Source: Dickeya fangzhongdai
GTDB taxonomy: Bacteria > Pseudomonadota > Gammaproteobacteria > Enterobacterales > Enterobacteriaceae
DNA length: 64,000 nucleotides
Assembly: GCF_002812485.1 (NCBI RefSeq)
Contig: NZ_CP025003.1
Coordinates: 4,836,001 to 4,900,000 of the forward strand
Reading direction: 5' to 3'
The notes under the pieces were generated by a model. The model saw only the letters and a program-made list of their open reading frames with translations. It was not told the origin of the DNA and did no database searches. This document shows positions 7,604-63,338 of the stretch, piece after piece. Position numbers and translations under genes: made by a program. Every line of letters begins with the position of its first letter. The stretch's first letter is position 1.

Positions 7604-7615
7604 CTCCGCTTCCCC

Positions 7616-8805: not shown

Positions 8806-8827
8806 ATAAAGGTGACGTGATAGATAA

Positions 8828-39550: not shown

Positions 39551-39620
39551 CGATGGACTCCAGCATAGCAACCGGTTCCTTTCATCCGTTAATCCTCCCA
39601 TTGTTACTTTTCTCAAAAAC

Positions 39621-39652
39621 AACAAAGCCGCCCGAAGGCGGCCATTGTTGCG
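39621..39652 (-). terminator. Terminator of DUF1471 copy 1
   Basis: On the minus strand, AACAATGGCCGCC-TTCG-GGCGGCTTTGTTGTTTT: a strong stem closed by TTCG and followed by T-rich sequence. The same hairpin follows copies 2 and 3. Confidence 0.85.
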
Positions 39653-39674
39653 CATGATAACGGTAAACCGGTTA

Positions 39675-39926: not shown

Positions 39927-40123
39927 GGTCAATATCCTTCACGTTGAATTTGGTTGGTTTCTTTAGTGAAAGCGTCTTCGCTTTCGATGGAAGTGATAAT
40001 AGACCTGTTGCTGCGACGTTAAAATCGGGTTTATTTGCAGATATCTTTCAAAAAAAATGAATAAAAAATAACCATGAATTGCCTGTCACCCGCAGACCCC
40101 GCCGCGGGTGACAGACGCGCCGG

Positions 40124-40987: not shown

Positions 40988-41012
40988 AAGGCAACCTGTT
41001 GGTAAGTGGACG

Positions 41013-42116: not shown

Positions 42117-42120
42117 AATC

Positions 42121-44081: not shown

Positions 44082-44130
44082 ACGCCACCTCGCTCGTCAG
44101 AGCCGGAGACACGCGCGCTCCGGCCGTGTC

Positions 44131-45510: not shown

Positions 45511-45532
45511 CCTGTTATTGAGGTTGACGAAT

Positions 45533-45551
45533 TAATTAAGTAACTTAATTA
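45533..45551. promoter_or_regulatory. AT-rich palindromic operator between the SBP gene and the ROK regulator
   Basis: TAATTAAGT and ACTTAATTA (45533-45541, 45543-45551) are perfect arms around a central A. AT-rich palindromes of this kind are typical of ROK/NagC/Mlc-type sites. The site is in the 91-bp gap between the divergent genes and could control both. Confidence 0.7.
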
Positions 45552-45601
45552 TATTGCAGACGTGTGAAGGAAACCGGACAGAACCGGGACAACGGATACC
45601 C

Positions 45602-46705: not shown

Positions 46706-46740
46706 AAACAACAAAGCCGCCCGAAGGCGGCCATTGTTGC
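46706..46740 (-). terminator. Terminator of DUF1471 copy 2
   Basis: The same hairpin as after copy 1 (GGCCGCC-TTCG-GGCGGC on the minus strand, with the T-rich tail). It can also stop the converging ROK transcript. Confidence 0.85.
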
Positions 46741-46763
46741 TGATGATAACGATAAACCGGTTA

Positions 46764-47030
46764 TCAGTTGTACAGTTCAGCCACGCCGCGCATCTGGTTT
46801 TCACCGGAGGTGGCGGAGATGATGCGGAACGATTTGGCGCCGGCCGCATTGGCTTTTTCAGACAGGCTGGCCTGCAGACTGTCCAGCGTAGCGGCTGTCG
46901 CGCTGACAGAGCCGACGGACAGGCTGGCGGACTGCTGTACTTCAGTCGCAGTGGACGTGGTCGCAGCGAAGGTGCCGAAAGAAACGGTAGCCAGGGCGAT
47001 AACTGCAACAATATTTTTGATAGCTTTCAT
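46764..47030 (-). CDS. Small exported DUF1471 protein, copy 2
   Basis: An 88-residue protein, signal peptide as in copy 1, then ATTSTATEVQQSASLSVGSV and one DUF1471 domain. Compared with copy 3 only two residues differ (VGSV against VGTV; LDSLQ against LDGLQ). ATG 47030 has AAGGA eight bases upstream. It is convergent with the ROK gene. Confidence 0.9.
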   Translation of the reverse strand: MKAIKNIVAVIALATVSFGTFAATTSTATEVQQSASLSVGSVSATAATLDSLQASLSEKANAAGAKSFRIISATSGENQMRGVAELYN

Positions 47031-47302
47031 GGTCAATATCCTTCACGTTGAATGGGGTGAGTATTCTTTTCAGGAGGCGCTCTCACCTTCGATGGAAGTG
47101 ATAATAGACCTGTTAACGCGACGTTAAAACCGGGTTTATTTGCAGATATCTTTCAAAAAATATGAAATAAAAATAACAATGGGACGGGAGTGATAACGAG
47201 CAACGACCGAACACTGTTTTACCCTCCTGATGCGAGTATCATGAAGTTTTCCGCCATCCCGCATGAACACATTCATGCCCTGAATTATGTGAGGAGTCTG
47301 TT

Positions 47303-47677
47303 TTGGTTACACGCATGACCTACGCGTTTCTGCCTCAGATCAAAGGCCCTTATGTCCACGCGACAAAGCACCGTGACGCCTTGTATATCTCCGGCCTGAC
47401 CGCCTTTGGCACCGATGCTCAATCGGCCGGGCTGGAATCCCAAACCCGCACGGTGCTCCAGCAAATTGCCGCCATTCTCGCCGCTGAAAAAAGAAGTACC
47501 GCTGATTTAATCAAACTCACTATCTTCGTCAGAGATATCTCTCAATTAGCCCTGATAAGAACACTGCTGTTTGATTTTTACGGCGAGCATTTGCCCGCTT
47601 GTTCGCTGATTGAAGTTTCAAGCCTGATTCACCCGGACCTGCTGATCGAAGTCGAATCGATTGTCGCACTGGCATAA
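47303..47677 (+). CDS. Rid-family (YjgF-like) protein lacking the catalytic arginine
   Basis: A 120-124 residue protein of the RidA/YjgF fold: YISGLTAFGTDAQ, KLTIFVRDISQLA, then PACSLIEVSSL and LLIEVESIVAL at the end. In RidA the fifth block reads PARSCVEV, with Arg105 needed to hydrolyse 2-aminoacrylate; here that position is Cys, so it is probably a Rid4-7 type without imine deaminase activity. AGGAG lies six bases before a TTG at 47303; an ATG at 47315 is the alternative. It is the outer gene of the NRPS cluster, on the opposite strand. Confidence 0.8.
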   Translation: MVTRMTYAFLPQIKGPYVHATKHRDALYISGLTAFGTDAQSAGLESQTRTVLQQIAAILAAEKRSTADLIKLTIFVRDISQLALIRTLLFDFYGEHLPACSLIEVSSLIHPDLLIEVESIVALA

Positions 47678-47739: not shown

Positions 47740-48483
47740 TTATACGACCAATAACGTTACCACCGCATCATGATTAATATAAAACCTGCCAGTAAATGAG
47801 ATATTGGCACGATATTGTTCGCCCCAGTCACAGGTTAGCTGAATTGTAAATCGCCGCTGTTTTATCCGTACCTGTGTTAACGCCGCCGCGGTGAAGTCGA
47901 AGAACTTATTTACTATCGGATTTAGCGCCTTAAAAAGGCTCTCTTTAGCAGAAAAGATCAGCGTACCAAGCTGTTCTACTGATAACCCACTTCCTGAACA
48001 TTCAACCCTGCGCCATTCATCCCCTACGGTAATCGCCGGGAGAACCTGCATTAACGTAGCGCTATCCATGATTCTTTCTACATCAATACCGACGGCAGTA
48101 TGATGCTGGCTGCTTGCAACAACCGCAACCGCACGGTCATTCGTATGAGAAATTGATCCGATATAACCGGCAGGCCATCGAGGCGCCCTGTCAGGTTGTA
48201 TCTCAATCGCCGGATAGGCTACGCCGCAAGACTTCAACGCCGTGGCCGCGACAACACGCCCGGCCAAAAATTCCGCTTGCCGCTTTCTCACCGACGAGGC
48301 AATGACCGGCGGTATGGTGATATTATAAAGATGAAAAAGTCGCTCGTTAAAATGAGCAATCTGAAACGTTCCCCACCCTACGGTAAATATTTCCGTTCGC
48401 GTGCGGTTAATAACGCCTATCCGCTCAATAAACCCGGCACCGGCGTCTACCATCCTCTTTTTCTCTCGACTCGGCGATATCAT
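47740..48483 (-). CDS. 4'-phosphopantetheinyl transferase (EntD/Sfp type)
   Basis: A 247-residue PPTase. The three family motifs are in order: YIGSISHTNDRAVAVV, AVGIDVERIMD (magnesium-binding Asp/Glu) and LIFSAKESLFKAL (Glu/Lys). It transfers phosphopantetheine from CoA to the carrier-domain serines, so it would activate the four carrier domains of the neighbouring NRPS. It is 20 bp downstream of the thioesterase gene in the same operon. A second ATG at 48453, with an AAGAGG immediately upstream, could also serve as the start. Confidence 0.9.
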   Translation of the reverse strand: MISPSREKKRMVDAGAGFIERIGVINRTRTEIFTVGWGTFQIAHFNERLFHLYNITIPPVIASSVRKRQAEFLAGRVVAATALKSCGVAYPAIEIQPDRAPRWPAGYIGSISHTNDRAVAVVASSQHHTAVGIDVERIMDSATLMQVLPAITVGDEWRRVECSGSGLSVEQLGTLIFSAKESLFKALNPIVNKFFDFTAAALTQVRIKQRRFTIQLTCDWGEQYRANISFTGRFYINHDAVVTLLVV

Positions 48484-48503: not shown

Positions 48504-49274
48504 TTATTTCCCATCCGTTTTATTCAAAATATCAGCCGCAATACCTTTAATGATTTGAGTAATATCATTGATGTGGTCATGAATAAAAAAATGCCCTCCC
48601 GGAAAGGAGGCAAAAGTAACGCGGGAACTAAACAGTTCCTGCCACAGCGCAATTCGCTCAGCAGGCAAATAGCGATCCCCATCGCCGGAAAAGAACATCG
48701 CGGGAACAGCGTACTTTAAGGTATCGGTATACTGGTACGTCTCCGAAATTCTGAAATCTGCTCTCAGCATCGGCAATAGCATGGCCATAATATCATTGGA
48801 ATTCAGTATCTCTTCCGACGTCCCTTTCATCTCTCTCAGCATATCGATAAATTTTTCATCCGAAACATGGTGCGTTTTTCTGGCAAGCTGCAATTGATGA
48901 GGGGGACGGCTGGCAGAGCCAATAAAAAACGCCGGCAATGGCAACCCGCGGCGCTGCAACTCCACCATCAGAGCAAACCCGATACACCCTCCCAGGCTAT
49001 GCCCAAAAATGATCAACGGCCGATCCAGCACTTGATGTATATACGTCATCAGTTCGCTTACCACCGCCGACATACTTTCATGCGGCGGCTCCGATAACCG
49101 GTATGACCGCCCAGGCAACTGGGCCACCACTACTTCCATGTCTTCCGGCAAATACTCATGCCAGTGTTGATACAGATTCGCGCTGCCGCCGGCATAGGGA
49201 ATGCACAACAACCGGATTCTGGCTGCGGGGTTGGGCCTGAAAACCGTGAATATTCCGGCGGACAGCATATCCAT
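48504..49274 (-). CDS. Type II thioesterase of the NRPS cluster
   Basis: A 256-residue alpha/beta hydrolase of the GrsT/EntH-like type II thioesterase group. It opens with RLLCIPYAGGSANLYQHW; the nucleophile lies in IIFGHSLGGCIGFAL (Ser93); the acid is in GDGDRYLPAE and the catalytic His in FPGGHFFIHDH. It removes misloaded or stalled acyl groups from carrier domains. Because the NRPS has no terminal thioesterase, it may also release the product. ATG 49274 is chosen for AGGAG 11 bases upstream; longer starts (ATG 49295, TTG 49310) have no good ribosome site. Confidence 0.88.
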   Translation of the reverse strand: MDMLSAGIFTVFRPNPAARIRLLCIPYAGGSANLYQHWHEYLPEDMEVVVAQLPGRSYRLSEPPHESMSAVVSELMTYIHQVLDRPLIIFGHSLGGCIGFALMVELQRRGLPLPAFFIGSASRPPHQLQLARKTHHVSDEKFIDMLREMKGTSEEILNSNDIMAMLLPMLRADFRISETYQYTDTLKYAVPAMFFSGDGDRYLPAERIALWQELFSSRVTFASFPGGHFFIHDHINDITQIIKGIAADILNKTDGK

Positions 49275-49319
49275 ATAAATCTTCTCTCCTTGCATCAGAC
49301 GAATAGCCAAATCACCTGT

Positions 49320-50252
49320 TCAGGCGCCTTCTTTCCGGGCCAGTTTCTTTCCCAGCGGAAAAAAACGGATATTCCTGAGGTAACCGGTGCCCAGCAATAC
49401 CCCGATGATGATCACCGCCATGCCGATTATCTGGATAGGCTCGACGGTTTTTCCCATAATAAAACTGATAGCCAGCGTAAAGACCGGCGTCAGGTTAGTC
49501 GTAATTGAGGTTTTTTCCGGCCCCAGCACCTGGCACCCTTTGACCCAGAAGTAATAGGCCAGTACTGTCCCGGCAATAGCCATATAAGCCAATAACGTAT
49601 AGGAGAGTTGGGATATCGACAGGTAGTCATAGCTGATGTCGTGCGTCAGCGCTGCAAACACCAACATAAATGCAGTACCAAACAGAATGGTCCATCGGGT
49701 TGCCTGCACGGGAGGAACATGGGTGATCAGCTTTTTGGTCAAAACAGCATATAAACCGCCACAGGCACAGGACACGATGATCCAGAGGTCCCCGCTGTTA
49801 TACCGCAGGGAAGAGAAATTCCCCTTGGCGATAACCAAAAACACGCCAAAGACACCCAATATCAACCCAATATATTGAGCCAGCGTGACTTTGGCCTTTA
49901 GCAATAACCGGGAAAACAGAATGCTCACCAATGGCATATTGGCCATGATTAGCGCCCCGTTAATAGGCGATGTCGATTTCATCCCTGCGAAGATCGCATA
50001 GTTAAAACAGAAAATCCCCAGAAAGCCTAATAAAGCGAGCGAAAGCACGTCCTTTATGGAAAGAGAAATATCCCGACCTTTGAAGATAAAAAGGGTAAAA
50101 GAAAAAATAACCGACGCGATAACAAATCGAACAATGGACGAAATGATGGGCGGCAGGTTGGCATCCAGTTCCGCAATGGCATTAAAATTACTGCCCCAGA
50201 AAAACACGGCCATAATGACCATGATCCATATATGATTATGTCTTGTATGCAT
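49320..50252 (-). CDS. EamA/DMT-superfamily transporter
   Basis: A 310-residue membrane protein with ten predicted helices in two five-helix repeats. It starts MHTRHNHIWIMVIMAVFFWG, and the second repeat begins around SGDLWIIVSCACGGLYAVLT. It is closest to the drug/metabolite (EamA, RhaT-like) group. ATG 50252 has CAGGAG five bases upstream. It lies between the NRPS (56 bp) and thioesterase genes in the same operon, so it is the candidate exporter of the peptide or of a precursor. Confidence 0.85.
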   Translation of the reverse strand: MHTRHNHIWIMVIMAVFFWGSNFNAIAELDANLPPIISSIVRFVIASVIFSFTLFIFKGRDISLSIKDVLSLALLGFLGIFCFNYAIFAGMKSTSPINGALIMANMPLVSILFSRLLLKAKVTLAQYIGLILGVFGVFLVIAKGNFSSLRYNSGDLWIIVSCACGGLYAVLTKKLITHVPPVQATRWTILFGTAFMLVFAALTHDISYDYLSISQLSYTLLAYMAIAGTVLAYYFWVKGCQVLGPEKTSITTNLTPVFTLAISFIMGKTVEPIQIIGMAVIIIGVLLGTGYLRNIRFFPLGKKLARKEGA

Positions 50253-50308
50253 ATTCACTCCTGTAAAAAAGAGAGGCCCACGCCAGTGAACCTCTTTCCT
50301 TATTTGCT

Positions 50309-53300
50309 TTAATCAGAAACAGACATCGCTGAATGCAGATATTCCGTTACCTGTTCGAACGCGTTGGATTGGAACAGAATATGGAATGGAACTTTGACGC
50401 CCAATTCATTCTCAATCCTGACCGATAGCCGCAGCACCGTCAGCGAATCCAATGCGGCATGAACCGACGCTTGCCGTGTCTCCCTCAGCCAGAGGGTACC
50501 GAGCACGGACGCAACATCCCGCTCACCGGACAGCGGGATCGAAAACCGGCGATCATAAGCATCATAGCGACTGCAACCACCGGAACCCAGACCTTTCGCC
50601 ATCCGATGCAAATCCGGATAAGCCGGCTCGCGGGTCGCCAGCACATCGTTGATAACCCGGTCATACACTGCATGAATAACCTGTAATTGCTCGTCGCTGA
50701 CCACCTTCCCGTTGGCGTTAAAGATAATATTGATACCACCGGTCTTGATATCGATACCGACATTCACCAGTAACGCAAAGTCGGCATGCTCAAACCAGCG
50801 AATCCGGCCGATGAAACGCTGGTCGTCAAGCGCGCTGCCATACACATGGAAATTCGTAAAATTGAACGCCGTTTCGGTCAGTCGTTGCGCGCCGACATCG
50901 CGCTGAATCATCGCGTATGGGTAATTACGGTGTGCCAGTACCTCGGTATAATTCTCAGCCACAGCGCCGACGAGCTGCGCCATCGGTATGCGTTCATCCA
51001 TCTGAAGGCGGAACGGCAGGATATTCAGATGCAGGCCGATCGTGTTATCCCCGCCTTCCTGTTCCAATCGAATATTGCCAAATACCCCGGTCGTGATATC
51101 ACGCTCTCCCGTTATCACTTGCAATGACACACAGTGACACGCCAACAGCAACTGATTAAGCGACACACCATACACATTGGCCCGATCTTTCAGACGGGTC
51201 GTAATATCAGGCGCATACCGTAACGTGCGCTCACTCCATCGCGTAGCAACCGCGGCCTGAGTTCTGGGCAACGCGTTATACCGATAATCAGCCAGATACG
51301 ATCGCCAGAAGGCTGAACTTTCTGCACTGCTGCGGGATGCAATCTCGTGCGCCACAACGTCACGGTAGTTCAGTCGAGTCTCACGCGGCGGCAGCACTGC
51401 AGGCTTGCCCGCCAGCAGACCGGTGTAGACGTTGAGCAACTGCGTCATCAGGTTTGCCAGGCTCCATCCGTCCAGAATGCAGTGATTGAAACTGAAGGCG
51501 AAATGGAAGGTTTCTTCTGTACAGCGAATCGCAAAGAAACGGCCGACCGGCGCAGTTGTCCAGTTGAAACCGGTCTGTTTCTCCTGCTCAAACCAGCGAT
51601 CGATAAAGCGCTCCTGCTCCGCAGCAGACAGATGTGAAATATCCATTTCCGTCAGTGGCAATGAAACATGACCATGCACAATCTGCATGATTTGACCGTA
51701 GCGGCTAAAGTCAAACGAGGTACGCAGTACATCATGTTCGGCAATCAACGATTGCAACGCCGTTCGGAAGTGCTCGCTGTCGTAAGGCAATGCAAGTTCA
51801 TAACACAACAGGTCATGGAAGACGCCCTGGCGAACATCCAGTTCGGAGTGATAAATCATCCCTTGTTGCAACAGCGTTGCCGGATACGCATCCACCACAC
51901 CCGCAGGTATCTGTCGCCGCTCTTCCGACGTCAGCAAAGCAAAAGGAGTCAGAGATGCGGCTTCCCGCTGACTGTCTCGAGAAAGGCACTCAGCCATCTT
52001 TCTGACCGTCTGCAACCTGAACATATCACTGACCTTGAGAGTCATCCCGGCTTGCTTGAGTTTCGCCACAATCCGGATCGCGTGAATGGAATCGCCGCCC
52101 AGAGTGAAATAACTATCATCAATGCCGATTCGCTCCAGCCCCAGCTCTTGCGCAATCAACGCGGCCAGCATCGCCTGCGGCGCGGTTTCCGGTGGAATAT
52201 ACGCTTGGGTATTCAGCACGTTATCAAACGGGTTGGGGAGCGATTTACGGTCCAGCTTACCATTTACCGTTATAGCGAACTTCTCGACCTCAACCAGATA
52301 AGCCGGGATCATGTGCGAAGGGAGTAACGCCTGAAGCTGCTGACGCAGAGTTCCGACATCCATCGAAGTCCCGACAGCCAGTTGGTAATAACCGGCCAGC
52401 GCCTTACTGCCGTTGTCCCGTTTCAACACCACCACCGTTGACTGAATGACGCCGTCCACTTTCGACAACGCGGCATCTACCTCCTGAACCTCAATCCGGT
52501 AGCCATTGATTTTCACCTGGGCGTCTTCACGTCCCAGATACTCCAGGTCGCCATTCGGCATCCTGCGGGCGATATCGCCGGACCGGTAAGCACGGAAGGT
52601 CTGTGTTCCGCTTTTCAACGTAACAAAACGCTCGCGATTCAACTGATCCCGCTCATGGTAACCCAGCGTAACCCCGCTGCCGCCGACAAAGATTTCCCCC
52701 GGCGTTCCTACGGGGACCGGCTGTAGCGCCTTGTTCAGCAAGGAAACCGTCAAATCCGGTATCGGTTCGCCAATCAGACTGCGGGTGCCATCACAGTCAC
52801 GTTGGGTAATTTCGCGATAGGTCACGTGTACGGTGGTTTCCGTAATGCCATACATATTGATTAACCGCGGACGGCGATCGCCATAGTGTTCGAACCAGGG
52901 TCTCAACCCTGCAATATTCAACGCCTCGCCGCCAAAGATGATGGACCGTAGGCTAAACGTAGGCCGGATATCGCGAGATAACGCCTCATTCTTAAACAGC
53001 TCAAAGGCCGACGGCGTCATGTTCAGGCGCGTGACCTGATGCAGCGCAGTCAGATCGACCATGCGAGTAATATCATGGGCTTCGCCGGGAGAAACCACGA
53101 CCAGCTTGCCGCCATAAAGCAATGCGCCCCACATTTCCCACACCGAAAAGTCGAACGAAAGCGAATGGAACAGCGTCCAGACATCATCCGATGAAAAATC
53201 AAACCAATGCTGAGTACTGCCGAATAGCCGCAGAACGTTGTGATTGGCAACCAGAACCCCTTTCGGATTCCCGGTCGAACCTGACGTGTAGATGATGTAC

Positions 53301-56300
53301 AACGGATCATCCGGTGCGACCTCAACGCTGGGATTCGAAGACCCGGCACTGTCCACTCTGGAAATATTCAGGAAAGTGCGATTCCCGAACGAACCGGCTT
53401 CATCCGTCGTTAATACCACCTCCAGACCGGCATCTTGAATGATGTAATCGATGCGCTCCTGCGGATAGGCGGGGTCAATAGGAACATAGGTGGCTCCCGT
53501 TTTCACGATCGCCAGCAGGCAGACGATTGCATCCAGATTTCGGGAGCAAAATGCGCCGACTCGCTGCGTCGGTCTGACGCCACGTTGGTTGATGAGATAG
53601 CTGGCGATACGGTTCGCGCGTTCGTTCAAAGCCCGATACGTGATATAGCGGTTTTCGAAAACCACGGCTTTCTTTTCCGGGTAGGTCGCCGCAATATGCT
53701 CGAATCTCGCCTTGATACTCTTTTCCCGGAAAACGCGGTCGGTCGCTTTCGGCACCTTCAGTTCAAAACAATCCCGTTCGGACAATAGATCCGTCGTTTG
53801 CATCGCGGCATCCGGTGCAGCGGACATCGCACTCAGCACGGCGAGGTAATAGCCAAGATAGCGATCAATCTGCTCGGCGGTAAACCGGCTGGCGTTGTAA
53901 TTGACCGTGATTTCCATCTGACGGGTGAACTTGTTATTGATGAAGTTAACCAGGTAATCAAAGTTTGTCTGTTCAAAATAGCTGGCGTGCTTCAGCACAA
54001 GATCATCGAGCGAGGAAAGGCGATCGTAGACATGGAAATCCACATAGTTGAAGTTACTGTCGAACAGAGAACTCTGCTCCGCCAGCTTCTGAATGTCGGC
54101 CAACGGCATAACGTGGTAGCCAATCAACTGATGTTCCGCCTCATGGACCGCCAGACACAGCTCACGCCAGCTCGTACGTTCGATATTCACGCGCACCGGC
54201 ACCGTATTCAGGAACAGCCCGGCAGCGGCATCCACCTGCTCCATTGCCGGACGCGCATTCATGGTGCAACCCGTGGATACATCCTGCGTGTTGGTGATCA
54301 TGCCCAGCACCTGCAGGTGCGCGGCAAGCATCACCGTTTTGACGGATACCCCTACATCGCTGGCCAGCGCATCGACTGCGGTTACCAGCGAAGCAGGCCA
54401 TACCCGCCCCCGGCTCTGCCAGACGTAATCCGCACCGTCGCCGTCCGCCAGACTGGGAAGCTCAGCTACCTGTAGCGCCTGCAAATACTGCTGCCAGAAT
54501 GATCGTATTTCCTGATTCTGTCGGGCTTCTTCTTCCTGCTGAGCAACGATGGGCTGAATCAGCAGTTCCGTTTCCTGTACCGAGCCGGCAGCTATCGTTT
54601 CCTGACGATAAAACAGCACCAGGTCCGTCACCAGCAACGCCACACTCCATCCATCCAGAATGGCATGATGGAAGCTGAAACCAACCACCAACGAGGTGGG
54701 GTTCTGCAATGCATTGATCCTGAAAAGCTGACCTGCGGCAAAATCAAAAGGACGCTGTTTTTCAATCGCTACCCAATCATCAAACGCCGCCTTCAGTTGC
54801 GCGTCAGCGGCCCCGTCATCGTACACATACCTGCAAGGGATCTCTGCGTTCTCAAACAGCAATTGCATGGGTACATTGCAGGATGCCAGATCAAAGGCGC
54901 TGCGCAGCACCGGATGCTTACAAGCCAGTTGCCGCACCGCACGCTGGAAAGCGGCGCTGTCGTGTTTATCGAACGCGAACACAAAATAAAACACGTCGTG
55001 ATAGGTATGCGCATGCAGATCAGAGTGATACAGCATTCCGGTCTGCAGCAAAGACGCCGGCCAGGCATCGCTACAGCCGACAGGCAGTTTGCCCGCCTCG
55101 TCATCAGAAACAAACCGGCGACGAACGTAGTCTTGCGACGGCAGATGCGCTTGCGTCGTCACCAGTCTCGCTGCCATATCTGATAACTTACGATGCTGGA
55201 AAACGTCCCGAAGCGTTATCTCATAGCCCAGTTCTTTCAGCCGGGACACCAGCTTCAATGAAATAATGGAATCCCCGCCCAGACGGAAAAAGTCGCCGTC
55301 ACGCGAAATCGCCTCGATTTTCAGCAGTGACGACCATACCGCCGCCAGCGCCTTTTCTTGCTGCGTTACCGGCGCAACAATCCGTGATTCCTGTTGATAG
55401 GCATCGGGATGAGGCAACGCCTTCCTGTTTTTCTTGCCATTGGGGGAGAGTGGGAAATCATCCAGCCGAATATACAGGCTGGGCACCATGAATTCCGGCA
55501 GCACTTTCGCAAGAGCATGCTCAAACGCCTCGTGCTCGCCCTCGCCGGTGTAGTACGCCACCAGTTGTTCCTGCCCGGAGCGCGACTTATGCACACTGAC
55601 AATCGCTTCTTTCACGCCGGAGATATTTTCCAACTGGCTTTCAATCTCACCCAGTTCAATTCTCAAACCACGGAGCTTGACCTGGTTATCTACCCGGCCG
55701 AGGTATTCGATATCGCCATCGCGGTCAAACCGCGCCACATCGCCGGTTTTATACATAACGGGCGATAGCGCCGGGTTGATCAGATTGCGGATGAACGCTT
55801 TGGCGGTCAGCTCCGGCTTATTGTGATACCCCCTGGCCAAGCCGACGCCGGCGATATACAACTCCCCTTTCACGCCAACCGGCACCGGGCTCATAAACTC
55901 ATCCAGAATGTACAGCTGAATGTTGTCGATGGGCCGGCCGATCGGCACCTTACCCCCCTTCAACCCCTGGTTGCAGGACCAGAAAGACACATCAATCGCC
56001 GCTTCCGTCGGGCCGTACAGATTATGCAGCTCAACGCCCGGCAAGCTTTCCCGGAACGCAACCACCGTATTGTTGGGTAATGCCTCACCGCTGCAAAAGA
56101 CGCGTTTGAGCGGGGTATGGCGCATCACGCCGTTCTGCTCCAGGAACAGGGATAGCATGGAAGGAACAAAATGCAGGGTGGTGACGCCTTTACGGCCAAT
56201 AACCTCCAGCAATGCTTGCGGATCTTTATGAACTTCAGGTTTTGCCACCGCCAGCGTTGCCCCGTACATCAGCGGCCAGAAGAATTCCCAGACCGAAACA

Positions 56301-59300
56301 TCAAAACTGAACGGCGTTTTCTGCAAAATGACGTCATGCGTAGTGAGTTGATACGCTTTCTGCATCCAGGCCAGGCGGTTGAACACGCCTTGATGGGTGT
56401 TCACCACCCCTTTGGGATTGCCCGTCGAGCCGGAGGTATAAATCATGTAGGCGGCGTCGTCTGCCGTCAGTTGCGGCAGCGCCAATGCCGTATGCCCAAC
56501 GCCGGTCAGTCGGCGAATATCCACAGTGAAAAAGGCATTATCGCCATGACCAGGCATACGCAGCCCCGCTTGCGTCAGCACCAGTCGCGGTTGTGAATCG
56601 GACAGCATGTATTCGATACGGTCCGCAGGGTAATTCGGATCCATCGGAACATAAACCGCTTCGGCAAACAGCACGGCCAACAGGCTCACTACCATCTCGG
56701 GCGACCGATTCATGTAAACGCCGACAAAGTCCCCTTTAGCGACCCCCTGTCGCTTGAGTTCCGCCGCCAAAGCCGCAACATGCCCCCCCAACTCCGCATA
56801 ACTAAGCCGAATATCTTCATATTCCAGCGCGGTTTTCTCCGGGCGACGCATTATCGAGTCATAAATGAACGAGACGATATTGCCATCACCATAGTCATAA
56901 GCGGTGCGGTTCCAGTCACAGGTAACGTGCTTTATCTCGTCAGGGCTCATCATTGGGCATGGCAGAACGGCACTGTCGGGCTGGCTTGCCATATTCACCA
57001 GCAGATTCCGCCAGTGCTGCGCAAAGCGCGCTATCGTTGACTCGCCAAATAAATCCGTGGCGTACTCGATTTCCAGGGTCAGATCGTCGGTATGGTGGTC
57101 CCGAAACAGAGAGAACTGAACATCAACCTTCGCCCCCTGAGAGGAGCGCCGATGCCTGTCGACTTGCAATCCGGAGAGTGTCAGCGGCGTTTCGTCCTGC
57201 TGTAGCACGAACAGGGTCTGATAGAGCGGGTTATACCCCAGGTTGCTGCCGATATTCAGCCGGTCAATGACGCTGGCGATATCGTAGGACTGATGCAACA
57301 TGCCTTCATCAAGCGTTGTCTGAATCTGGCGCAGCAACGCCCGCAGCGTCATGCCATCCTGAAAACAAATGCGTATCGGCAGGGTATTGGCAAAATAGCC
57401 CAGGGTGCTTTCAACCTCATGTCGGACCCGGTTTGTCACCGGAGTCGCGATCACCATATCGCGCTGTCCGGTATATTTCGCCAGCAAAACGGCATAGGCG
57501 GAGAGCAGGCCGACATATGGCGTACACCCTTCTTCTCTGGCCAGCGCCACAAGCGGTTGATACTCCGCCGCGCGGATAGTCAACCAACGGTGCGCCCCGT
57601 GGAAGGAAAACACCCCCGGTCGGGAGTAATCGGTCGGCAATTCCAGAAGTTCCGGCGCGCCTTTCAGTTTTTCAGCCCAGTATTCAACATGCTGGCTGTC
57701 GTTCTGACGGCGCTCCCATTCGGCGTAGCTAAAATAATCGATGTGCGACTCATCCCGCACGCTCTGGATATCGTTCACGCTCTGGATATCGTTATAGTTA
57801 TCCGATAATTGCTGAATGAATAAATTATGTGACCAGCCATCACTGATGACATGGTGCATAACAACGGATAATTGCCATGTCTGCGCGTTCTCCCGATACA
57901 GTGCAACGCGTAGCGGCAACGCATTAAACAGATCAAACGGACGAATACGCTGCGCCGTCAGCTCCTGCTCTGACTGGCAGCGTACGATTTCAAGGCGCGC
58001 TTCAGATCTGGCGGCCTGGAAAAATTGCCCGCCGATATCGTCAAATCGGGTAACCAATACCCGATTGTCAGCAATCAATTTTTGCAGTGCAGCATTGAGT
58101 CTGTCGCTGTCCAACTCACCCGAGATCACAAAATCCATCGGGAGATTATAGGCCGTCGATTGTGGTGACAATTTCTGTAAAAACAAAAGATTACTTTGTA
58201 CGCGGCTCGTCTTGTAAGCGGACTGCTGCAGATTAACCACCCGATCCGCCTCAATATCGTTATCGTTCCCGCTTTTCAATATCGATGCCTGCCCGGCGAT
58301 AGTTTTTGCCGCATAAAGCGCATCAAATGTGATCCGGTATCCCTGTTTTTTTAGCTCGTTATAAACCATGAAATTTTTTATTGAATCACCGCCGACCGAA
58401 ACAAAGGAGCGATCCGCCGCAATGGCATCAAGGTTTAAAATCGAGCACCATATCCGGTGTACATCGCGCTCTTCCTGTGTGCGCAAATGGTGTTCATTAA
58501 TCGTCTGGCGCGGCGCGCTCAGTTGTTCATTCGCGATTGCCAGCAGCCGTTGCCTGTCAATTTTATCATTCGGCAACTTAGGCAGCTTATCCATAGCGCG
58601 GATAACCGAAGGGACGACCTCTTGAGGCAGCACCCGCTCCAGCGCCGCGCGTACCTGCTGCTCACTGACCGGCATGGCGCCTCGGATGTCATAGAACAGG
58701 CAGATCCGCTTGTCTGACAGACGGGTATAGGCCAATACGGCAGCAGCACCGTGAATACCCGGAATAGTCAGCGCCGCAGATTCGATTTCACCCAGTTCAA
58801 TACGCACTCCACGAATTTTTACCTGACTATCAATACGGCTGACAAAGACCAATTCGCCACGCTCGTTCTGACGCACCAGATCGCCCGTCCGGTAATAACG
58901 CTTATTGCCAAATGATTTTAATGTAAGGAATTTTTCATCTGTTGCCGCCGCGTTATTGAGATACCCCTGCGCCAGACAATCGCCGCCGATATAAAGCTCG
59001 CCTTCCTCTCCTGTCGCCACTTCATGGCCTGCATTATCCAGCAAGCGCAAATCCACCTGGCGGATCGCTTTGCCAATCGGCGCATCACCATTCAGCGGGG
59101 ACGTGACCAGGTAATCCGTTACGTTAATCGCACACTCGGTCGGACCATAAATATTCAGTAATGGGATATCAAAACAGGCAAAATGGCTATCAATAAGCTG
59201 CTTATCCAGCACCTCGCCCCCGGTCGCCACCATCCTTAACTGCTTACAACGGGGGAAAAGCTCACAAGCCTGAAGGGCCCGCAGCATTGACGGCACCACC

Positions 59301-60019
59301 TGAATCAGGGTCACGTTCTGCCTGATCATCAGTTCACACAAATATTCCGGATTACGTTGCCCCCCTTGTTTGGGGACGACCAGCCGCCCGCCGCTCATCA
59401 GAGCACAGAATATCTCCCTGACGGCGGCATCAAAGGAAAGCGCGGATTGCTGTAAAAATGCATCCTGGTGATTGATATTATAGGTTTCAATTTGGTGGGA
59501 TATATTATTCAGAACACCAAGATGGGTATTAACAACGCCTTTAGGATTACCGGTTGAGCCTGATGTATAAGTGATAAAAAAAGGATCGTTTTTATTAATT
59601 TCAATATCAGATAAGGCTCGCGCATCAGATGTTGATTTTTCGTTATCAAGTATGTCAATAATCTGAATGCTATCTGTAACCCAATTTACTTCCTCACCCC
59701 GCCTGGATATAAGAAATCGACTATTCGAATTATCCAGCAGATATTTCTTTCTGGCTTCAGGAAGGTCCACCTCGATAGGCATATAACAGCAACCCGCCTT
59801 CAACACGCCCAACAGCGCGATAATAGTCTCAACGCTTCTCCCGAAAGAGATACAAACTATCTGATTTTTCTGCACTCCGGCATTTAACAAACGCATTCCT
59901 GCTGCATCGGAAAGCTTATCAAGTTGCGAATATGTAACAGAGCGACTTTCATCGACGACCGCGATGTTCTCTCCATTCTCAACAACCTGAGCTTTAATAT
60001 AATCAAGCGCGAGTTTCAA
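50309..60019 (-). CDS. Three-module-plus non-ribosomal peptide synthetase, A-T-C-A-T-C-A-T-C-T
   Basis: 3236 residues. Order: A1 1-500 (core ITYTSGSTGNPKG, 149-161); T1 about 512-585, Ser546 in GGDSI; C1 600-1045, HHVISDG at 722-728; A2 1046-1540; T2, Ser1584; C2 1645-2085, HHAILDG at 1784-1790; A3 2095-2600; T3, Ser2644; C3 2705-3130, NHCILDG at 2845-2851; T4 3160-3236, Ser3192 in ALDSLTVLRL. By alignment in my head to GrsA, the A2 code is DVWHFSLID (serine, as EntF) and the A3 code DFWNIGMVH (threonine). The A1 code DARQAGIIN I do not recognise; Asp235 implies an alpha-amino acid. No loading C domain, no E domain, no terminal TE. The start is TTG with AAGGAG six bases before it. PPTase, TE and EamA genes follow in one operon. 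Confidence 0.92.
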   Translation of the reverse strand: MKLALDYIKAQVVENGENIAVVDESRSVTYSQLDKLSDAAGMRLLNAGVQKNQIVCISFGRSVETIIALLGVLKAGCCYMPIEVDLPEARKKYLLDNSNSRFLISRRGEEVNWVTDSIQIIDILDNEKSTSDARALSDIEINKNDPFFITYTSGSTGNPKGVVNTHLGVLNNISHQIETYNINHQDAFLQQSALSFDAAVREIFCALMSGGRLVVPKQGGQRNPEYLCELMIRQNVTLIQVVPSMLRALQACELFPRCKQLRMVATGGEVLDKQLIDSHFACFDIPLLNIYGPTECAINVTDYLVTSPLNGDAPIGKAIRQVDLRLLDNAGHEVATGEEGELYIGGDCLAQGYLNNAAATDEKFLTLKSFGNKRYYRTGDLVRQNERGELVFVSRIDSQVKIRGVRIELGEIESAALTIPGIHGAAAVLAYTRLSDKRICLFYDIRGAMPVSEQQVRAALERVLPQEVVPSVIRAMDKLPKLPNDKIDRQRLLAIANEQLSAPRQTINEHHLRTQEERDVHRIWCSILNLDAIAADRSFVSVGGDSIKNFMVYNELKKQGYRITFDALYAAKTIAGQASILKSGNDNDIEADRVVNLQQSAYKTSRVQSNLLFLQKLSPQSTAYNLPMDFVISGELDSDRLNAALQKLIADNRVLVTRFDDIGGQFFQAARSEARLEIVRCQSEQELTAQRIRPFDLFNALPLRVALYRENAQTWQLSVVMHHVISDGWSHNLFIQQLSDNYNDIQSVNDIQSVRDESHIDYFSYAEWERRQNDSQHVEYWAEKLKGAPELLELPTDYSRPGVFSFHGAHRWLTIRAAEYQPLVALAREEGCTPYVGLLSAYAVLLAKYTGQRDMVIATPVTNRVRHEVESTLGYFANTLPIRICFQDGMTLRALLRQIQTTLDEGMLHQSYDIASVIDRLNIGSNLGYNPLYQTLFVLQQDETPLTLSGLQVDRHRRSSQGAKVDVQFSLFRDHHTDDLTLEIEYATDLFGESTIARFAQHWRNLLVNMASQPDSAVLPCPMMSPDEIKHVTCDWNRTAYDYGDGNIVSFIYDSIMRRPEKTALEYEDIRLSYAELGGHVAALAAELKRQGVAKGDFVGVYMNRSPEMVVSLLAVLFAEAVYVPMDPNYPADRIEYMLSDSQPRLVLTQAGLRMPGHGDNAFFTVDIRRLTGVGHTALALPQLTADDAAYMIYTSGSTGNPKGVVNTHQGVFNRLAWMQKAYQLTTHDVILQKTPFSFDVSVWEFFWPLMYGATLAVAKPEVHKDPQALLEVIGRKGVTTLHFVPSMLSLFLEQNGVMRHTPLKRVFCSGEALPNNTVVAFRESLPGVELHNLYGPTEAAIDVSFWSCNQGLKGGKVPIGRPIDNIQLYILDEFMSPVPVGVKGELYIAGVGLARGYHNKPELTAKAFIRNLINPALSPVMYKTGDVARFDRDGDIEYLGRVDNQVKLRGLRIELGEIESQLENISGVKEAIVSVHKSRSGQEQLVAYYTGEGEHEAFEHALAKVLPEFMVPSLYIRLDDFPLSPNGKKNRKALPHPDAYQQESRIVAPVTQQEKALAAVWSSLLKIEAISRDGDFFRLGGDSIISLKLVSRLKELGYEITLRDVFQHRKLSDMAARLVTTQAHLPSQDYVRRRFVSDDEAGKLPVGCSDAWPASLLQTGMLYHSDLHAHTYHDVFYFVFAFDKHDSAAFQRAVRQLACKHPVLRSAFDLASCNVPMQLLFENAEIPCRYVYDDGAADAQLKAAFDDWVAIEKQRPFDFAAGQLFRINALQNPTSLVVGFSFHHAILDGWSVALLVTDLVLFYRQETIAAGSVQETELLIQPIVAQQEEEARQNQEIRSFWQQYLQALQVAELPSLADGDGADYVWQSRGRVWPASLVTAVDALASDVGVSVKTVMLAAHLQVLGMITNTQDVSTGCTMNARPAMEQVDAAAGLFLNTVPVRVNIERTSWRELCLAVHEAEHQLIGYHVMPLADIQKLAEQSSLFDSNFNYVDFHVYDRLSSLDDLVLKHASYFEQTNFDYLVNFINNKFTRQMEITVNYNASRFTAEQIDRYLGYYLAVLSAMSAAPDAAMQTTDLLSERDCFELKVPKATDRVFREKSIKARFEHIAATYPEKKAVVFENRYITYRALNERANRIASYLINQRGVRPTQRVGAFCSRNLDAIVCLLAIVKTGATYVPIDPAYPQERIDYIIQDAGLEVVLTTDEAGSFGNRTFLNISRVDSAGSSNPSVEVAPDDPLYIIYTSGSTGNPKGVLVANHNVLRLFGSTQHWFDFSSDDVWTLFHSLSFDFSVWEMWGALLYGGKLVVVSPGEAHDITRMVDLTALHQVTRLNMTPSAFELFKNEALSRDIRPTFSLRSIIFGGEALNIAGLRPWFEHYGDRRPRLINMYGITETTVHVTYREITQRDCDGTRSLIGEPIPDLTVSLLNKALQPVPVGTPGEIFVGGSGVTLGYHERDQLNRERFVTLKSGTQTFRAYRSGDIARRMPNGDLEYLGREDAQVKINGYRIEVQEVDAALSKVDGVIQSTVVVLKRDNGSKALAGYYQLAVGTSMDVGTLRQQLQALLPSHMIPAYLVEVEKFAITVNGKLDRKSLPNPFDNVLNTQAYIPPETAPQAMLAALIAQELGLERIGIDDSYFTLGGDSIHAIRIVAKLKQAGMTLKVSDMFRLQTVRKMAECLSRDSQREAASLTPFALLTSEERRQIPAGVVDAYPATLLQQGMIYHSELDVRQGVFHDLLCYELALPYDSEHFRTALQSLIAEHDVLRTSFDFSRYGQIMQIVHGHVSLPLTEMDISHLSAAEQERFIDRWFEQEKQTGFNWTTAPVGRFFAIRCTEETFHFAFSFNHCILDGWSLANLMTQLLNVYTGLLAGKPAVLPPRETRLNYRDVVAHEIASRSSAESSAFWRSYLADYRYNALPRTQAAVATRWSERTLRYAPDITTRLKDRANVYGVSLNQLLLACHCVSLQVITGERDITTGVFGNIRLEQEGGDNTIGLHLNILPFRLQMDERIPMAQLVGAVAENYTEVLAHRNYPYAMIQRDVGAQRLTETAFNFTNFHVYGSALDDQRFIGRIRWFEHADFALLVNVGIDIKTGGINIIFNANGKVVSDEQLQVIHAVYDRVINDVLATREPAYPDLHRMAKGLGSGGCSRYDAYDRRFSIPLSGERDVASVLGTLWLRETRQASVHAALDSLTVLRLSVRIENELGVKVPFHILFQSNAFEQVTEYLHSAMSVSD
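57758..57793. repeat. 18-bp tandem duplication inside the first condensation domain
   Basis: CACGCTCTGGATATCGTT occurs twice without gap (57758-57775, 57776-57793). It encodes NDIQSV twice, at residues 743-754 or so, in the loop about 20 residues after the catalytic HHVISDG motif. It keeps the frame. Confidence 0.95.
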
Positions 60020-60320: not shown

Positions 60321-60354
60321 AAACAACAAAGCCGCCCGAAGGCGGCCATTGTTG
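60321..60354 (-). terminator. Terminator of DUF1471 copy 3
   Basis: The hairpin is identical to the one after copy 2 (GGCCGCC-TTCG-GGCGGC on the minus strand). Confidence 0.85.
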
Positions 60355-60378
60355 CTGATGATAACGATAAACCGGTTA

Positions 60379-60645
60379 TCAGTTGTACAGTTCAGCCACG
60401 CCGCGCATCTGGTTTTCACCGGAGGTGGCGGAGATGATGCGGAACGATTTGGCGCCGGCCGCATTGGCTTTTTCAGACAGGCTGGCCTGCAGACCGTCCA
60501 GCGTAGCGGCTGTCGCGCTGACGGTGCCGACGGACAGGCTGGCGGACTGCTGTACTTCAGTCGCAGTGGACGTGGTCGCAGCGAAGGTGCCGAAAGAAAC
60601 GGTAGCCAGGGCGATAACTGCAACAATATTTTTGATAGCTTTCAT
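60379..60645 (-). CDS. Small exported DUF1471 protein, copy 3
   Basis: An 88-residue protein, signal peptide MKAIKNIVAVIALATVSFGT and one DUF1471 domain. Nearly identical to copy 2. ATG 60645 has the same AAGGA site. Such proteins are often induced by envelope or acid stress; no specific role can be assigned here. Confidence 0.9.
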   Translation of the reverse strand: MKAIKNIVAVIALATVSFGTFAATTSTATEVQQSASLSVGTVSATAATLDGLQASLSEKANAAGAKSFRIISATSGENQMRGVAELYN

Positions 60646-60821
60646 GGTCAATATCCTTCACGTTGAATGGGGTGAGTATTCTTTTCAGGAGGCGTCCTCG
60701 CCTTCGATGGAAGTGATAATAGACCTGTTAACGCGACGTTAAAACCGGGTTTATTTGCAGATATCCTTCAAAATATGTGAACAATATTTATTCATGTCTT
60801 CCCGCCTTTTCCCCGCCGGAT

Positions 60822-61103
60822 TTACTGCGGCGGGCACACCCACAGCGTGTTGACGCACGAACCGGGCTTACTGTTGCCGGCCGCCGGATGCACCGGCATG
60901 CATCCGTCGATCGCCGGTGTCTGGCCTATCGCCTGAACCCTGTCCGGGTGCGCCAGCAAATATTCCGTCACAATCCGGCGGATCTCCGCCCGCTGCGCCT
61001 CGGTAAATTCACGATTGCCATCCGCCGGATAAGGCGCAATAGCCAGCCCGCATAACGGCAGCATCAGCAACACCCCGCCTGCCACCAGCCTGTTTACTTT
61101 CAT
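60822..61103 (-). CDS. Small exported protein resembling the N-terminal helix of ScsC/DsbA-like proteins
   Basis: A 93-residue protein with a signal peptide (MKVNRLVAGGVLLMLPLCGL). An amphipathic stretch FTEAQRAEIRRIVTEYLLAHPD is similar in style to the N-terminal oligomerisation segment of ScsC/Com1-type disulfide proteins. After it comes a short tail with three cysteines (GCMPVHP, SCVNTLWVCPP) and no thioredoxin domain. It could be a remnant of a longer gene or a small protein in its own right. TGAGGAGGCAATC places AGGAGG well for ATG 61103. Confidence 0.6.
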   Translation of the reverse strand: MKVNRLVAGGVLLMLPLCGLAIAPYPADGNREFTEAQRAEIRRIVTEYLLAHPDRVQAIGQTPAIDGCMPVHPAAGNSKPGSCVNTLWVCPPQ

Positions 61104-61492
61104 GATTGCCTCCTCACCTCGGGAGATCCGCTATGGCAGGCTCACTCCCCCCATGAAATGGGCCTGCCGCACAGCGTATCTAAGCCGTGTCGCCATCGGT
61201 TGTCCGATCCCCTCAACGATGCCCCGCCCGCATTCGGTTAGCGCCGCCATCCGGGAACACGCAGTCAGGCTACCGGTCAGGCGGTAAATTTGTCGTAAAA
61301 GCCGGTTATGCGGGTATAAAAATTCTGTATAGGGTAGGGAATCCGACATATCTCTATGATTAGAAAAAACAAATCCTTATTAACAAACACCCGTCCGGCG
61401 ATGACGGTAGGCAAATCCCCGCTAACGCAGGCATGATAAACGTCGATGATTCGCAGCGGGCACGCGCCCGCCGTTTACTGGAGACAACGATC
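61104..61492. other. Intergenic region before dsdA
   Basis: About 390 bp without a supported gene. It has an inverted repeat GGCAGGC / GCCTGCC around 61135-61165 and an AT-rich stretch at 61300-61390 that probably contains the dsdA promoter. No dsdC-type regulator gene is next to dsdA. Confidence 0.5.
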
Positions 61493-62860
61493 ATGGCTGA
61501 CGCCGTATACGGTAAATCCTTGCCACAATGGTTCCACGACTTTCCACTGCTGGAACCGCTGGTTAACCGCCAACCGGTGTGCTGGTTTAATCCGGCCGTG
61601 GTCCCCGTACGCGACGCGCTGGGCGACGTGCCGCTGACTGATGCCGACGTAGCCGACGCCAGCCAGCGCCTGCAACGGTTCGCGCCTTTTCTGCGCCAGG
61701 CTTTTCCGGAACTGGCAGCCAGCCACGGCATCATCGAGTCCGAACTGGTGCCGGTGCCGGCGTTTGCCGCCGCAATCGCCCGGCAGGCGGGGCTGGATGC
61801 GCCATCCTCCGTGTTACTGAAGCTGGACAGCCACTTGCCGGTGGCGGGGTCGGTCAAAGCGCGCGGCGGCATTTACGAGGTGCTGTACCACGCCGAACAA
61901 TTGGCGTTGCGTCACGGCTTACTGCAGGAAAGCGATGACTATCGCCGCCTGCTGGACGACGACTGTCAGCAGTTGTTCCATCGCCACAAAGTGGCGGTTG
62001 GCTCTACCGGCAATCTGGGGATGTCGATCGGCATCGCCAGCGCCCGGCTGGGGTTTGACACCACGGTGCACATGTCCGCCGATGCCCGCCAGTGGAAGAA
62101 AGACCGGTTGCGCGCGCACGGCGTGCGGGTGGTGGAATACGACGGCGATTACGGTCAGGCGGTGGCGCAAGGCCGCCGGGAAGCGCAATCCGACCCGAGC
62201 TGCCACTTTATCGACGACGAAAACTCGACTTCGCTGTTTCTGGGCTACGCGGTGGCGGGCGAACGGCTGAAAGCGCAGTTTGCCGCGCAGGGCCGGGTGG
62301 TGGACGCCGATCATCCGCTGTTCGTGTATCTGCCTTGCGGCGTCGGCGGCGCGCCCGGCGGCATCAGTTTCGGGCTGAAACTGGCGTTTGGCGATCACGT
62401 GCACTGCATTTTCGCTGAACCGACCGAATCCCCCTGCATGCTGATGGGCGTCTACACCGGCCTGCACGATCGGCTGGCGGTGCAGGATTTCGGCATCAGC
62501 AACCGCACTACCGCGGACGGGCTGGCGGTCGGTCGGCCGTCCGGCTTTGTCGGCAACGCCATGCAGCGGCTGATCGACGGTTACTACACGCTGACGGATG
62601 AAGAAATGCTGGCGCTACTGCATGTGATGCACGAAACCCAGCAAATTCTGCTGGAGCCGTCCGCGCTGGCGGGCGCGCCGGGTTTTCTGCGTTTGTTGCA
62701 GGAAAATCAGGGCTACCGCCGGCGCGCGCCGCTGACGCCGCAGCGTTGCCGGCAAGGCACCCATGTTATCTGGGCCACCGGCGGCGGCATGGTGCCGGAA
62801 GACGAGATGGCGCGTTATCTGCAGGCGGGCGCCGCCTGCCGCCAGTCACGGATGCTGTAA
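61493..62860 (+). CDS. dsdA: D-serine dehydratase
   Basis: A 455-residue fold-type II PLP enzyme. The Schiff-base lysine is Lys122 in [16 protein letters not shown]. The phosphate loop is [20 protein letters not shown], and the C-terminal [12 protein letters not shown] is typical of DsdA. It converts D-serine to pyruvate and ammonia. ATG 61493 is chosen because GGAG lies nine bases before it; the frame starts 20 codons earlier. The E. coli enzyme is 442 residues. No dsdX or dsdC gene is adjacent; a GNAT gene follows after 13 bp. Confidence 0.94.
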
Positions 62861-62873
62861 GGAAACCTGCCTG

Positions 62874-63338
62874 ATGTCGCTTATCGATTTTACGCCGGTG
62901 GATTACCCGCGCCTGATTCGCTGGGTAGACAGCGCCGAACTGAATCTGCTGTGGGGCGGCCCCACGTATTCGTTCCCACTCACCGCCACGCAGATTACCG
63001 ATCATCTGGCTAACCCGCAGTTTGCCCCGTATCTGTTTGAGCATCAGGGCGCTATCGTGGGATTTGTCGAACTGTATCAGGTGGAACCGCGCCACAGCCG
63101 GCTGTGCCGGGTGTTCATCGACCCGGCGTACCGCGGGCGCGGGCTGGCGCGCGCGATGTTGCAGGCCGCCATCCGACAGGCGGCGGAGCGGTTTGAGGCG
63201 CAAGCCGTATCGCTGTCGGTGTTTACCCATAACCACAGCGCGCTGCGCTGCTATCAGTCGCTCGGTTTTCACATCACCGCCGCCGCCCCGTTCGGCGATC
63301 AGGGGCTGGAACTGACGACGATGCGCCTGACCCTGTAA
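62874..63338 (+). CDS. GNAT-family N-acetyltransferase
   Basis: A 154-residue GNAT protein. Motif A reads RVFIDPAYRGRGLARAMLQA, with the acetyl-CoA loop YRGRGLA, followed by the HNHSALRCYQSLGFHI motif B. It lies 13 bp after dsdA on the same strand, so it is probably co-transcribed. ATG 62874 has AGGAA upstream. Acceptor unknown; an amino acid or small amine is plausible from the neighbour. Confidence 0.88.
   Translation: MSLIDFTPVDYPRLIRWVDSAELNLLWGGPTYSFPLTATQITDHLANPQFAPYLFEHQGAIVGFVELYQVEPRHSRLCRVFIDPAYRGRGLARAMLQAAIRQAAERFEAQAVSLSVFTHNHSALRCYQSLGFHITAAAPFGDQGLELTTMRLTL

What the first reader, a model, noticed from the sequence alone, without database searches (positions are those of the whole stretch)
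50309..60019. NRPS with no loading condensation domain, no terminal thioesterase and a C-T end: unrecognised peptide system
The 3236-residue protein reads A-T-C-A-T-C-A-T-C-T. Seen: three adenylation domains, three condensation domains, four carrier domains. It starts directly with an adenylation domain (free N-terminal amino acid) and ends without thioesterase, reductase or epimerase. A2 and A3 codes predict Ser and Thr, so the backbone begins X-Ser-Thr and is then passed to a carrier with no adenylation domain. I do not recognise this order among the Dickeya metabolites I know (chrysobactin, indigoidine, zeamine, oocydin).
Basis: partly seen in the sequence, partly recalled or inferred. Interest (0 to 1): 0.85.

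Follow-up and report, generated by a model that had tools for sequence, protein, structure and literature searches.

The report
Albopeptide-like dehydropeptide synthetase in Dickeya
A plant-rotting bacterium carries a gene set that most likely makes and exports a tiny reactive tripeptide of a kind described from Streptomyces, and the enzyme's puzzling 'unfinished' end turns out to be shared by its relatives.

Summary
The order A-T-C-A-T-C-A-T-C-T is real, but the 3236-residue ORF is on the minus strand. It matches the order and Ser/Thr codes of albopeptide-type synthetases of Streptomyces (Val-Dha-E-Dhb; review PMC10880069), fused into one protein with another first residue. C2 and C3 fall in the dehydrating (CmodAA) condensation clade. 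The C-T end is a family trait: the last carrier's serine is kept in 24 of 24 proteins aligned. Full-length orthologues in D. oryzae (89%) and Vibrio parahaemolyticus (60%) rule out an assembly error. A thioesterase, exporter and phosphopantetheinyl transferase follow. The block is a 13.2-kb low-GC island between 461-bp direct repeats, missing from related genomes; gain or loss is not settled. The contig length equals that of D. fangzhongdai JS5T, whose 'GR3' NRPS was reported in 2019 without a product. Predicted product: X-Dha-Dhb. X is unassigned; C3 lacks the usual Lys/Arg, so Thr dehydration is less certain than Ser dehydration.

The parts
50309..60019 (-). NRPS, 3236 aa, A1-T1-C1-A2-T2-C2-A3-T3-C3-T4
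   Evidence: orthologues P0001 (89%) and P0002 (60%)
58766..60004 (-). A1, code DARQAGIIN, substrate X unassigned; same code in both orthologues
58274..58477 (-). T1 (GGDSI)
56945..58234 (-). C1, outside the CmodAA clade, HHVISDG, no K/R...H motif
55625..56872 (-). A2, Ser code DVWHFSLID
55160..55363 (-). T2 (GGDSI)
53780..55084 (-). C2, CmodAA: HHAILDG and KTVMLAAH; in a 29-tip clade of which 28 follow a Ser A domain
52460..53710 (-). A3, Thr code DFWNIGMVH
51980..52180 (-). T3 (GGDSI)
50600..51907 (-). C3, in the CmodAA clade but NHCILDG and NQLLLACH (Asn at the K/R site); 18 of 18 in its clade follow a Thr A domain
50333..50458 (-). T4, degenerate terminal carrier with conserved DSL serine
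49320..50258 (-). EamA/DMT-family exporter
   Evidence: orphan copy in G003; copy next to an NRPS relic in a Xenorhabdus plasmid
48504..49310 (-). stand-alone thioesterase (PF00975), closest solved relative RifR; GHSLG motif
47740..48483 (-). 4'-phosphopantetheinyl transferase, EntD-like (91.7 bits, below the EntD model's cut-off of 169)
47303..47677 (+). Rid/YjgF-family protein inside the island; Cys where the three aligned relatives shown have Arg
46706..47166 (.). direct repeat, left copy (461 bp, 98.0%), carries an 88-aa gene on the minus strand
60321..60781 (.). direct repeat, right copy, carries an 88-aa YdgH/BhsA-like gene on the minus strand

Best explanation
This is an albopeptide-type dehydrotripeptide assembly line on one polypeptide, carried on an island. 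A1 loads an unassigned amino acid X on T1. C1 joins X to Ser (A2-T2). C2, a dehydrating condensation domain, turns Ser into Dha and joins X-Dha to Thr (A3-T3). C3, of the same clade, acts on T3-bound X-Dha-Thr: most likely it dehydrates Thr to Dhb and moves the chain to the empty carrier T4 or to water. T4 carries no amino acid of its own. The adjacent thioesterase releases X-Dha-Dhb or clears stalled chains; the EamA protein exports it and may protect the producer; the PPTase activates the carriers. Shown: domain order, codes, clade membership, motifs, conserved T4 serine, gene order, direct repeats and an island-free site. Inferred: every chemical step and the roles of the accessory genes, by homology to AlbB and AmbE as described in reviews.
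For: Same order and Ser/Thr codes as four Streptomyces loci (Val-type code DAFWVGGTF in 4 of 4); AlbB-C2 and -C3 biochemistry as told in PMC10880069. C3's best solved relatives are McyA (266 bits) and AmbE (174), next PvdL (126). C2 and C3 lie in a 224-tip clade with support 1.0, C1 outside it; the [K/R]......H motif is in 209 of 224 tips inside and 0 of 571 outside. T4 serine 24 of 24. Full-length orthologues keep 3228 aa and all domains. AmbE is a precedent for passing a dehydrated chain to a last carrier.
Against: C3 has Asn at the site that is Lys/Arg in all 50 CmodAA domains of PMC11342130 and in 220 of 224 tips here. A1's code has no close match outside its orthologues (best 5 of 9 positions among 1582 A domains). 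tblastn at 1e-3 found no homologue of the thioesterase, PPTase, EamA or Rid genes in the four Streptomyces loci (20-42 kb held). The terminal carrier is called only weakly there (6-12 bits), and in 6 of the 24 family proteins the HMM did not call it above 8 bits. S. albofaciens AlbA/AlbB were not fetched. The tree sample was drawn from hits to this protein and is biased.
Confidence: 0.75

Rival explanations
1. C3 has lost dehydration: it only moves or hydrolyses the chain, and the product is X-Dha-Thr.
For: Asn at the Lys/Arg site in the window protein, P0001 and P0002, and NHxxxDG instead of HHxxxDG. Mutation of the matching Arg in AmbE reduced activity (PMC11342130 section 8).
Against: The motif His and the second His of HHxxxDG are kept; the Thr code and C3-T4 are kept at 60% identity; the Scytonema relative also has NH but keeps Lys. 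PMC10880069 states that the AmbE residues tested by mutation are not conserved in other dehydrating domains.
Confidence: 0.25
2. T4 is loaded in trans with a fourth amino acid and the product is a tetrapeptide X-Dha-Dhb-Y; the thioesterase could shuttle the aminoacyl group, as LgnA does.
For: T4 keeps its serine in the relatives aligned; LgnA, a type II thioesterase, moves Thr between carriers before a dehydrating C domain acts (PMC8748450, passages).
Against: No free A domain among the neighbouring ORFs scanned; AlbB makes a tripeptide with three C domains.
Confidence: 0.12
3. The terminal C-T is a leftover of a lost module or a sequencing error (the finding's own refuter).
For: T4 is short and matches about half of the Pfam profile.
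Against: Same end in D. oryzae and Vibrio; same kind of end in 25 of 231 proteins examined; serine kept.
Confidence: 0.03

Closest known systems
Albopeptide synthetases AlbA/AlbB (Streptomyces)
   Same: Order A-T-C then A(Ser)-T-C(mod)-A(Thr)-T-C(mod)-T in four Streptomyces loci taken to be of this type; a transporter-like gene directly downstream.
   Different: One protein here instead of two; A1 code is not the Val-type one; Asn at the C3 motif site; EamA, thioesterase, PPTase and Rid genes here, an MFS-like gene (below Pfam's cut-off) there.
[quoted passage not shown]
   Same: Dehydrating C followed by a carrier without an A domain of its own; chain passed on by transthioesterification (PMC10880069).
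   Different: AmbE has MT and TE in cis and the pathway has oxygenases; substrate is Glu.
Solanimycin SolG (Dickeya)
   Same: Dickeya NRPS product rich in Dha (PMC10204066, passages).
   Different: Hybrid PKS/NRPS; its authors place the SolG C domain in the 'dual' clade; the window protein scores 1398 bits against a cut-off of 2200 for the SolG model.
D. fangzhongdai 'GR3' NRPS region (PMC6329079)
   Same: Very probably this locus: contig length 5,027,163 equals JS5T; four genes, 12,717 nt, genes 4354-4357 of 4478, relative position 0.972 in both.
   Different: The paper reports no homologous cluster, no product and no horizontal-transfer signature; its Table 2 gives other gene numbers (4516-4553) for the strain-specific NRPS.

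Membership tests
albopeptide-type X-Dha-Dhb synthetase | A(X)-T-C-A(Ser)-T-C-A(Thr)-T-C order | tested here: met
albopeptide-type X-Dha-Dhb synthetase | first residue Val (albopeptide proper) | tested here: not met
   A1 code DARQAGIIN against DAFWVGGTF; hence filed as a variant, not as albopeptide
albopeptide-type X-Dha-Dhb synthetase | product contains Dha and E-Dhb | not testable with these tools
   needs mass spectrometry and NMR
CmodAA dehydrating C domain (C2) | clade plus [K/R]SVLLAAH-like motif and HHxxxDG | tested here: met
   KTVMLAAH, HHAILDG; clade
CmodAA dehydrating C domain (C3) | clade membership and motif His | tested here: met
CmodAA dehydrating C domain (C3) | Lys/Arg at the start of the motif | tested here: not met
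   Asn in the window protein, P0001 and P0002
CmodAA dehydrating C domain | donor carrier of the GGDSx type | tested here: met
   T2 and T3 GGDSI; T1, before C1, is also GGDSI, so this does not discriminate
type II thioesterase | stand-alone PF00975 with GxSxG | tested here: met
Rid imine deaminase | conserved active-site Arg (recalled) | tested here: not met
   Cys at that column in the three alignments shown

The most novel reading that the evidence does not exclude
Albopeptide is one member of a wider set of X-Dha-Dhb warhead tripeptides with an exchangeable first residue, all released through a conserved dehydrating-C/mini-carrier end unit. In the gammaproteobacterial branch C3 works without the Lys/Arg found in the other members, a thioesterase acts on the mini-carrier, and the exporter is kept as a stand-alone resistance gene by kin that lost the synthetase.
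Probability: 0.3. Interest if true: 0.7.

Novelty: new variant of a known kind. Interest (0 to 1): 0.5.

Why it matters
It gives a testable structure class to an NRPS cluster reported in 2019 without a product, extends the albopeptide-type gene architecture from Streptomyces to Gammaproteobacteria (Dickeya, Vibrio, a Xenorhabdus relic), and offers a natural C3 variant for asking what the Lys/Arg of dehydrating C domains does and what the terminal carrier is for. Dehydroamino acids are reactive, so the product is a plausible weapon against competitors or plants (inference only).

Tried and rejected
Rejected: siderophore (no receptor or catechol gene among the neighbouring ORFs scanned; not every ORF was scanned); lost terminal module (see rivals); canonical Rid deaminase that deals with released enamines (Arg replaced by Cys).

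Led nowhere: a single-sequence AlphaFold model of T4 (mean pLDDT 59.8, mixed helix and strand, not a carrier fold) is too poor to use for or against and was not searched. The genome-contig scan with the whole protein kept 79 loci; the 80 loci were not examined one by one beyond the A-domain codes, and L070 and L075 gave hits of 437-442 residues to C3 without T4. Order, class and phylum searches found only the own genome in 394, 369 and 378 genomes at E 1e-90, 1e-80 and 1e-80 (the sets overlap), and 0 of 148 in the Vibrio group at 1e-90, without a positive control. One search did not assign A1.

Literature: searches were term searches; of the 67 papers that one search found, 20 were listed, and I saw passages of three of these (PMC6329079, PMC6206727, PMC9765074) and one whole section of the first.

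Full report
What is there. The 3236-aa ORF at 50309-60019 is on the minus strand. Pfam finds three AMP-binding, three Condensation and four PP-binding stretches, in the order A-T-C-A-T-C-A-T-C-T. Codes read by alignment are A1 DARQAGIIN, A2 DVWHFSLID, A3 DFWNIGMVH; A2 and A3 are the usual Ser and Thr codes (recalled). Directly downstream on the same strand are an EamA/DMT exporter, a stand-alone PF00975 thioesterase and an EntD-like PPTase; a Rid-family gene follows on the other strand.

Not an assembly accident. A search of 5.8 billion proteins (2557 candidates scored, best 120 listed) gives two full-length relatives: P0001 (Dickeya oryzae, 89%) and P0002 (Vibrio parahaemolyticus, 60%), both 3228 aa over 100% of the query; the other 118 listed are NRPSs at 28-35% identity. 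The three align end to end with the same architecture. All nine code positions of A1 and A2 are identical in the three; A3 differs at one position in P0001.

The family. A search with C3-T4 alone listed 120 hits. I took all 21 that cover at least 95% of that query, besides P0001 and P0002. Nineteen of the 21 carry a Ser-code and a Thr-code A domain; the other two (P0159, P0170) are incomplete upstream and carry the Thr code. All 42 of their C2 and C3 domains have the [K/R]......H motif. Named sources are Streptomyces, Amycolatopsis, Lentzea, Actinocrispum, Paraburkholderia and Scytonema. My carrier HMM calls the last T above 8 bits in 18 of the 24 proteins (these 21, the window protein, P0001, P0002) and misses it in six; in the alignment the serine is kept in 24 of 24. 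Of 231 proteins examined, 44 end in a C domain with [K/R/N]......H and no later A domain, and 25 of the 44 have DSL or DSI in the tail. Some of the other ends may be contig edges.

Link to albopeptide. PMC10880069 (section 18 read whole; other passages) describes albopeptide, a Val-Dha-E-Dhb tripeptide made by AlbA and AlbB from Val, Ser and Thr with three C domains: C1 canonical, C2 making Dha and condensing, C3 making E-Dhb and hydrolysing. L109-L111 come from the three best of 199 Streptomyces-group genomes (E below 1e-100); weaker hits there (from 37% identity down) were not examined. The window protein looks like this pair fused, with another A1. I did not fetch S. albofaciens, so that these loci make albopeptide is itself an inference.

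Dehydrating C domains. PMC11342130 (section 8 read whole; passages) gives the CmodAA hallmarks: a [K/R]SVLLAAH motif, with His in 48 of 50 and Lys or Arg in all, and the first His of HHxxxDG missing in seven. C1 reads YVGLLSAY, C2 KTVMLAAH, C3 NQLLLACH. In a tree of 795 C domains, taken from the proteins and thinned at 85% identity, C2 and C3 lie in a 224-tip clade with support 1.0 and C1 does not; some branches inside the clade are weak (0.1-0.4). C3's 18-tip clade (0.984) follows Thr A domains in 18 of 18; C2's 29-tip clade (0.995) follows Ser in 28 of 29, with no assigned A domain for one. In the whole 224-tip clade 85 follow Thr, 41 Ser, 70 another code and 28 none assigned, so the clade is not confined to Ser/Thr. 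The full motif is in 209 of 224 tips inside and 0 of 571 outside. The sample was drawn by similarity to the query and is biased. C3's best solved relatives are the C domains of McyA and AmbE.

The weak point. C3 has Asn where Lys or Arg stands in the 50 published domains; in its 28-tip clade only it and the Vibrio protein do, and P0001 shares it. It also has NHxxxDG. Dehydration of Ser by C2 is therefore better supported than dehydration of Thr by C3.

The last carrier. T4 matches only the second half of the Pfam profile but keeps the serine. AmbE is a precedent in which the dehydrated chain is passed to a last carrier and then hydrolysed. LgnA shows that a type II thioesterase can work with a dehydrating C domain, by moving Thr between carriers (PMC8748450, passages). 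I favour transfer to T4 and release, with the thioesterase 48504-49310 as the likely hydrolase; this is inference.

The island. The block sits between two copies of a 461-bp repeat with 98.0% identity, 46706-47166 and 60321-60781, each with an 88-aa gene; the right copy's is YdgH/BhsA-like. Four related genomes were compared at the site. G008 has one repeat copy with both flanks collinear (window 37198-47166 on 12-9990 and 60321-63225 on 9536-12437 of L125). G005 lacks the block and has two tandem copies; G007 lacks it too, with a truncated copy; G003 keeps only the exporter. The sites of G001, G002, G004 and G006 were not read. The segment 47167-60320 has 46-56% GC per kilobase against 59-66% in the flanks, which speaks for foreign origin, but direct repeats also allow clean excision, so gain in this line and loss in others cannot be told apart here, and PMC6329079 lists no horizontal-transfer signature for GR3. 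A query of T3-C3-T4 found no orthologue in the eight other genus genomes (best 32% identity).

Orphan exporters. Of nine genus genomes, four have an EamA match at 1e-30: the own one, G003 (79% identity) and two at 32-33%. The G003 gene is intact and at the same site, without NRPS, thioesterase, PPTase or Rid matches in the 16 kb held; dN/dS against the window gene is 0.115 with dS 1.13. A Xenorhabdus plasmid (L092) keeps a C3 in two frames, T4 and an intact EamA gene (67%). Among 394 genomes of the order, two others have an EamA relative at 1e-60, at 40% identity, not followed up. Two orphan cases fit a resistance or export role kept after loss of the synthetase but prove nothing.

Already in print. 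The window's contig is 5,027,163 bases long, the size given for D. fangzhongdai JS5T, CP025003, in PMC6329079. That paper (section 18 read whole; passages) lists region GR3, 12,717 nt, genes 4354-4357, NRPS, and an NRPS cluster shared by JS5, B16, S1 and MK7 for which no homologous cluster and no product were known. 4354 of 4478 genes is 0.972 of the genome, as is this locus. Its Table 2 gives gene numbers 4516-4553 for the NRPS row, which does not agree with Table 4, so the identity is very probable, not proven. My term searches showed no paper that links an albopeptide-type cluster to Dickeya; most subscription journals are not held.

Verdict. A real, intact and, in the genomes searched, rare cluster, a new variant of the albopeptide kind. 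The unusual end is shared by its relatives. Open points: X, the C3 Asn, and the role of T4.

Noticed in passing
39675-39926 (-): A third, diverged copy (83 aa; the repeat is 89% identical in DNA) of the small YdgH/BhsA-like gene, about 7 kb from the left repeat copy; G005 has two tandem copies at the site.
   Followed up: partly
L127 4944-5975: Orphan, intact EamA exporter at the same chromosomal site in a related genome that lacks the rest of the cluster.
   Followed up: yes
L092 20001-22617: Xenorhabdus plasmid relic: C3 in two frames, terminal carrier and an intact exporter.
   Followed up: partly
61433-62860 (+): D-serine ammonia-lyase gene next to the island; it is collinear in the island-free genome G008, so it is probably not part of the cluster.
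   Followed up: partly
proteins P0133, P0137-P0140, P0150, P0185-P0187, P0192: Ten proteins of order C-A(Ser)-T-C-T-C (one with an extra C call) that end in a CmodAA domain and have a carrier without an A domain.
   Followed up: no
G000:C1:1700944-1702098: The genome's nearest other C domain (35%) lies in a 2197-aa NRPS frame near 1.70 Mb; its cluster was not identified.
   Followed up: no
L093 14283-21707, L109-L111: AlbB-type Streptomyces proteins start with about half a C domain although the preceding protein already ends in a full one.
   Followed up: no
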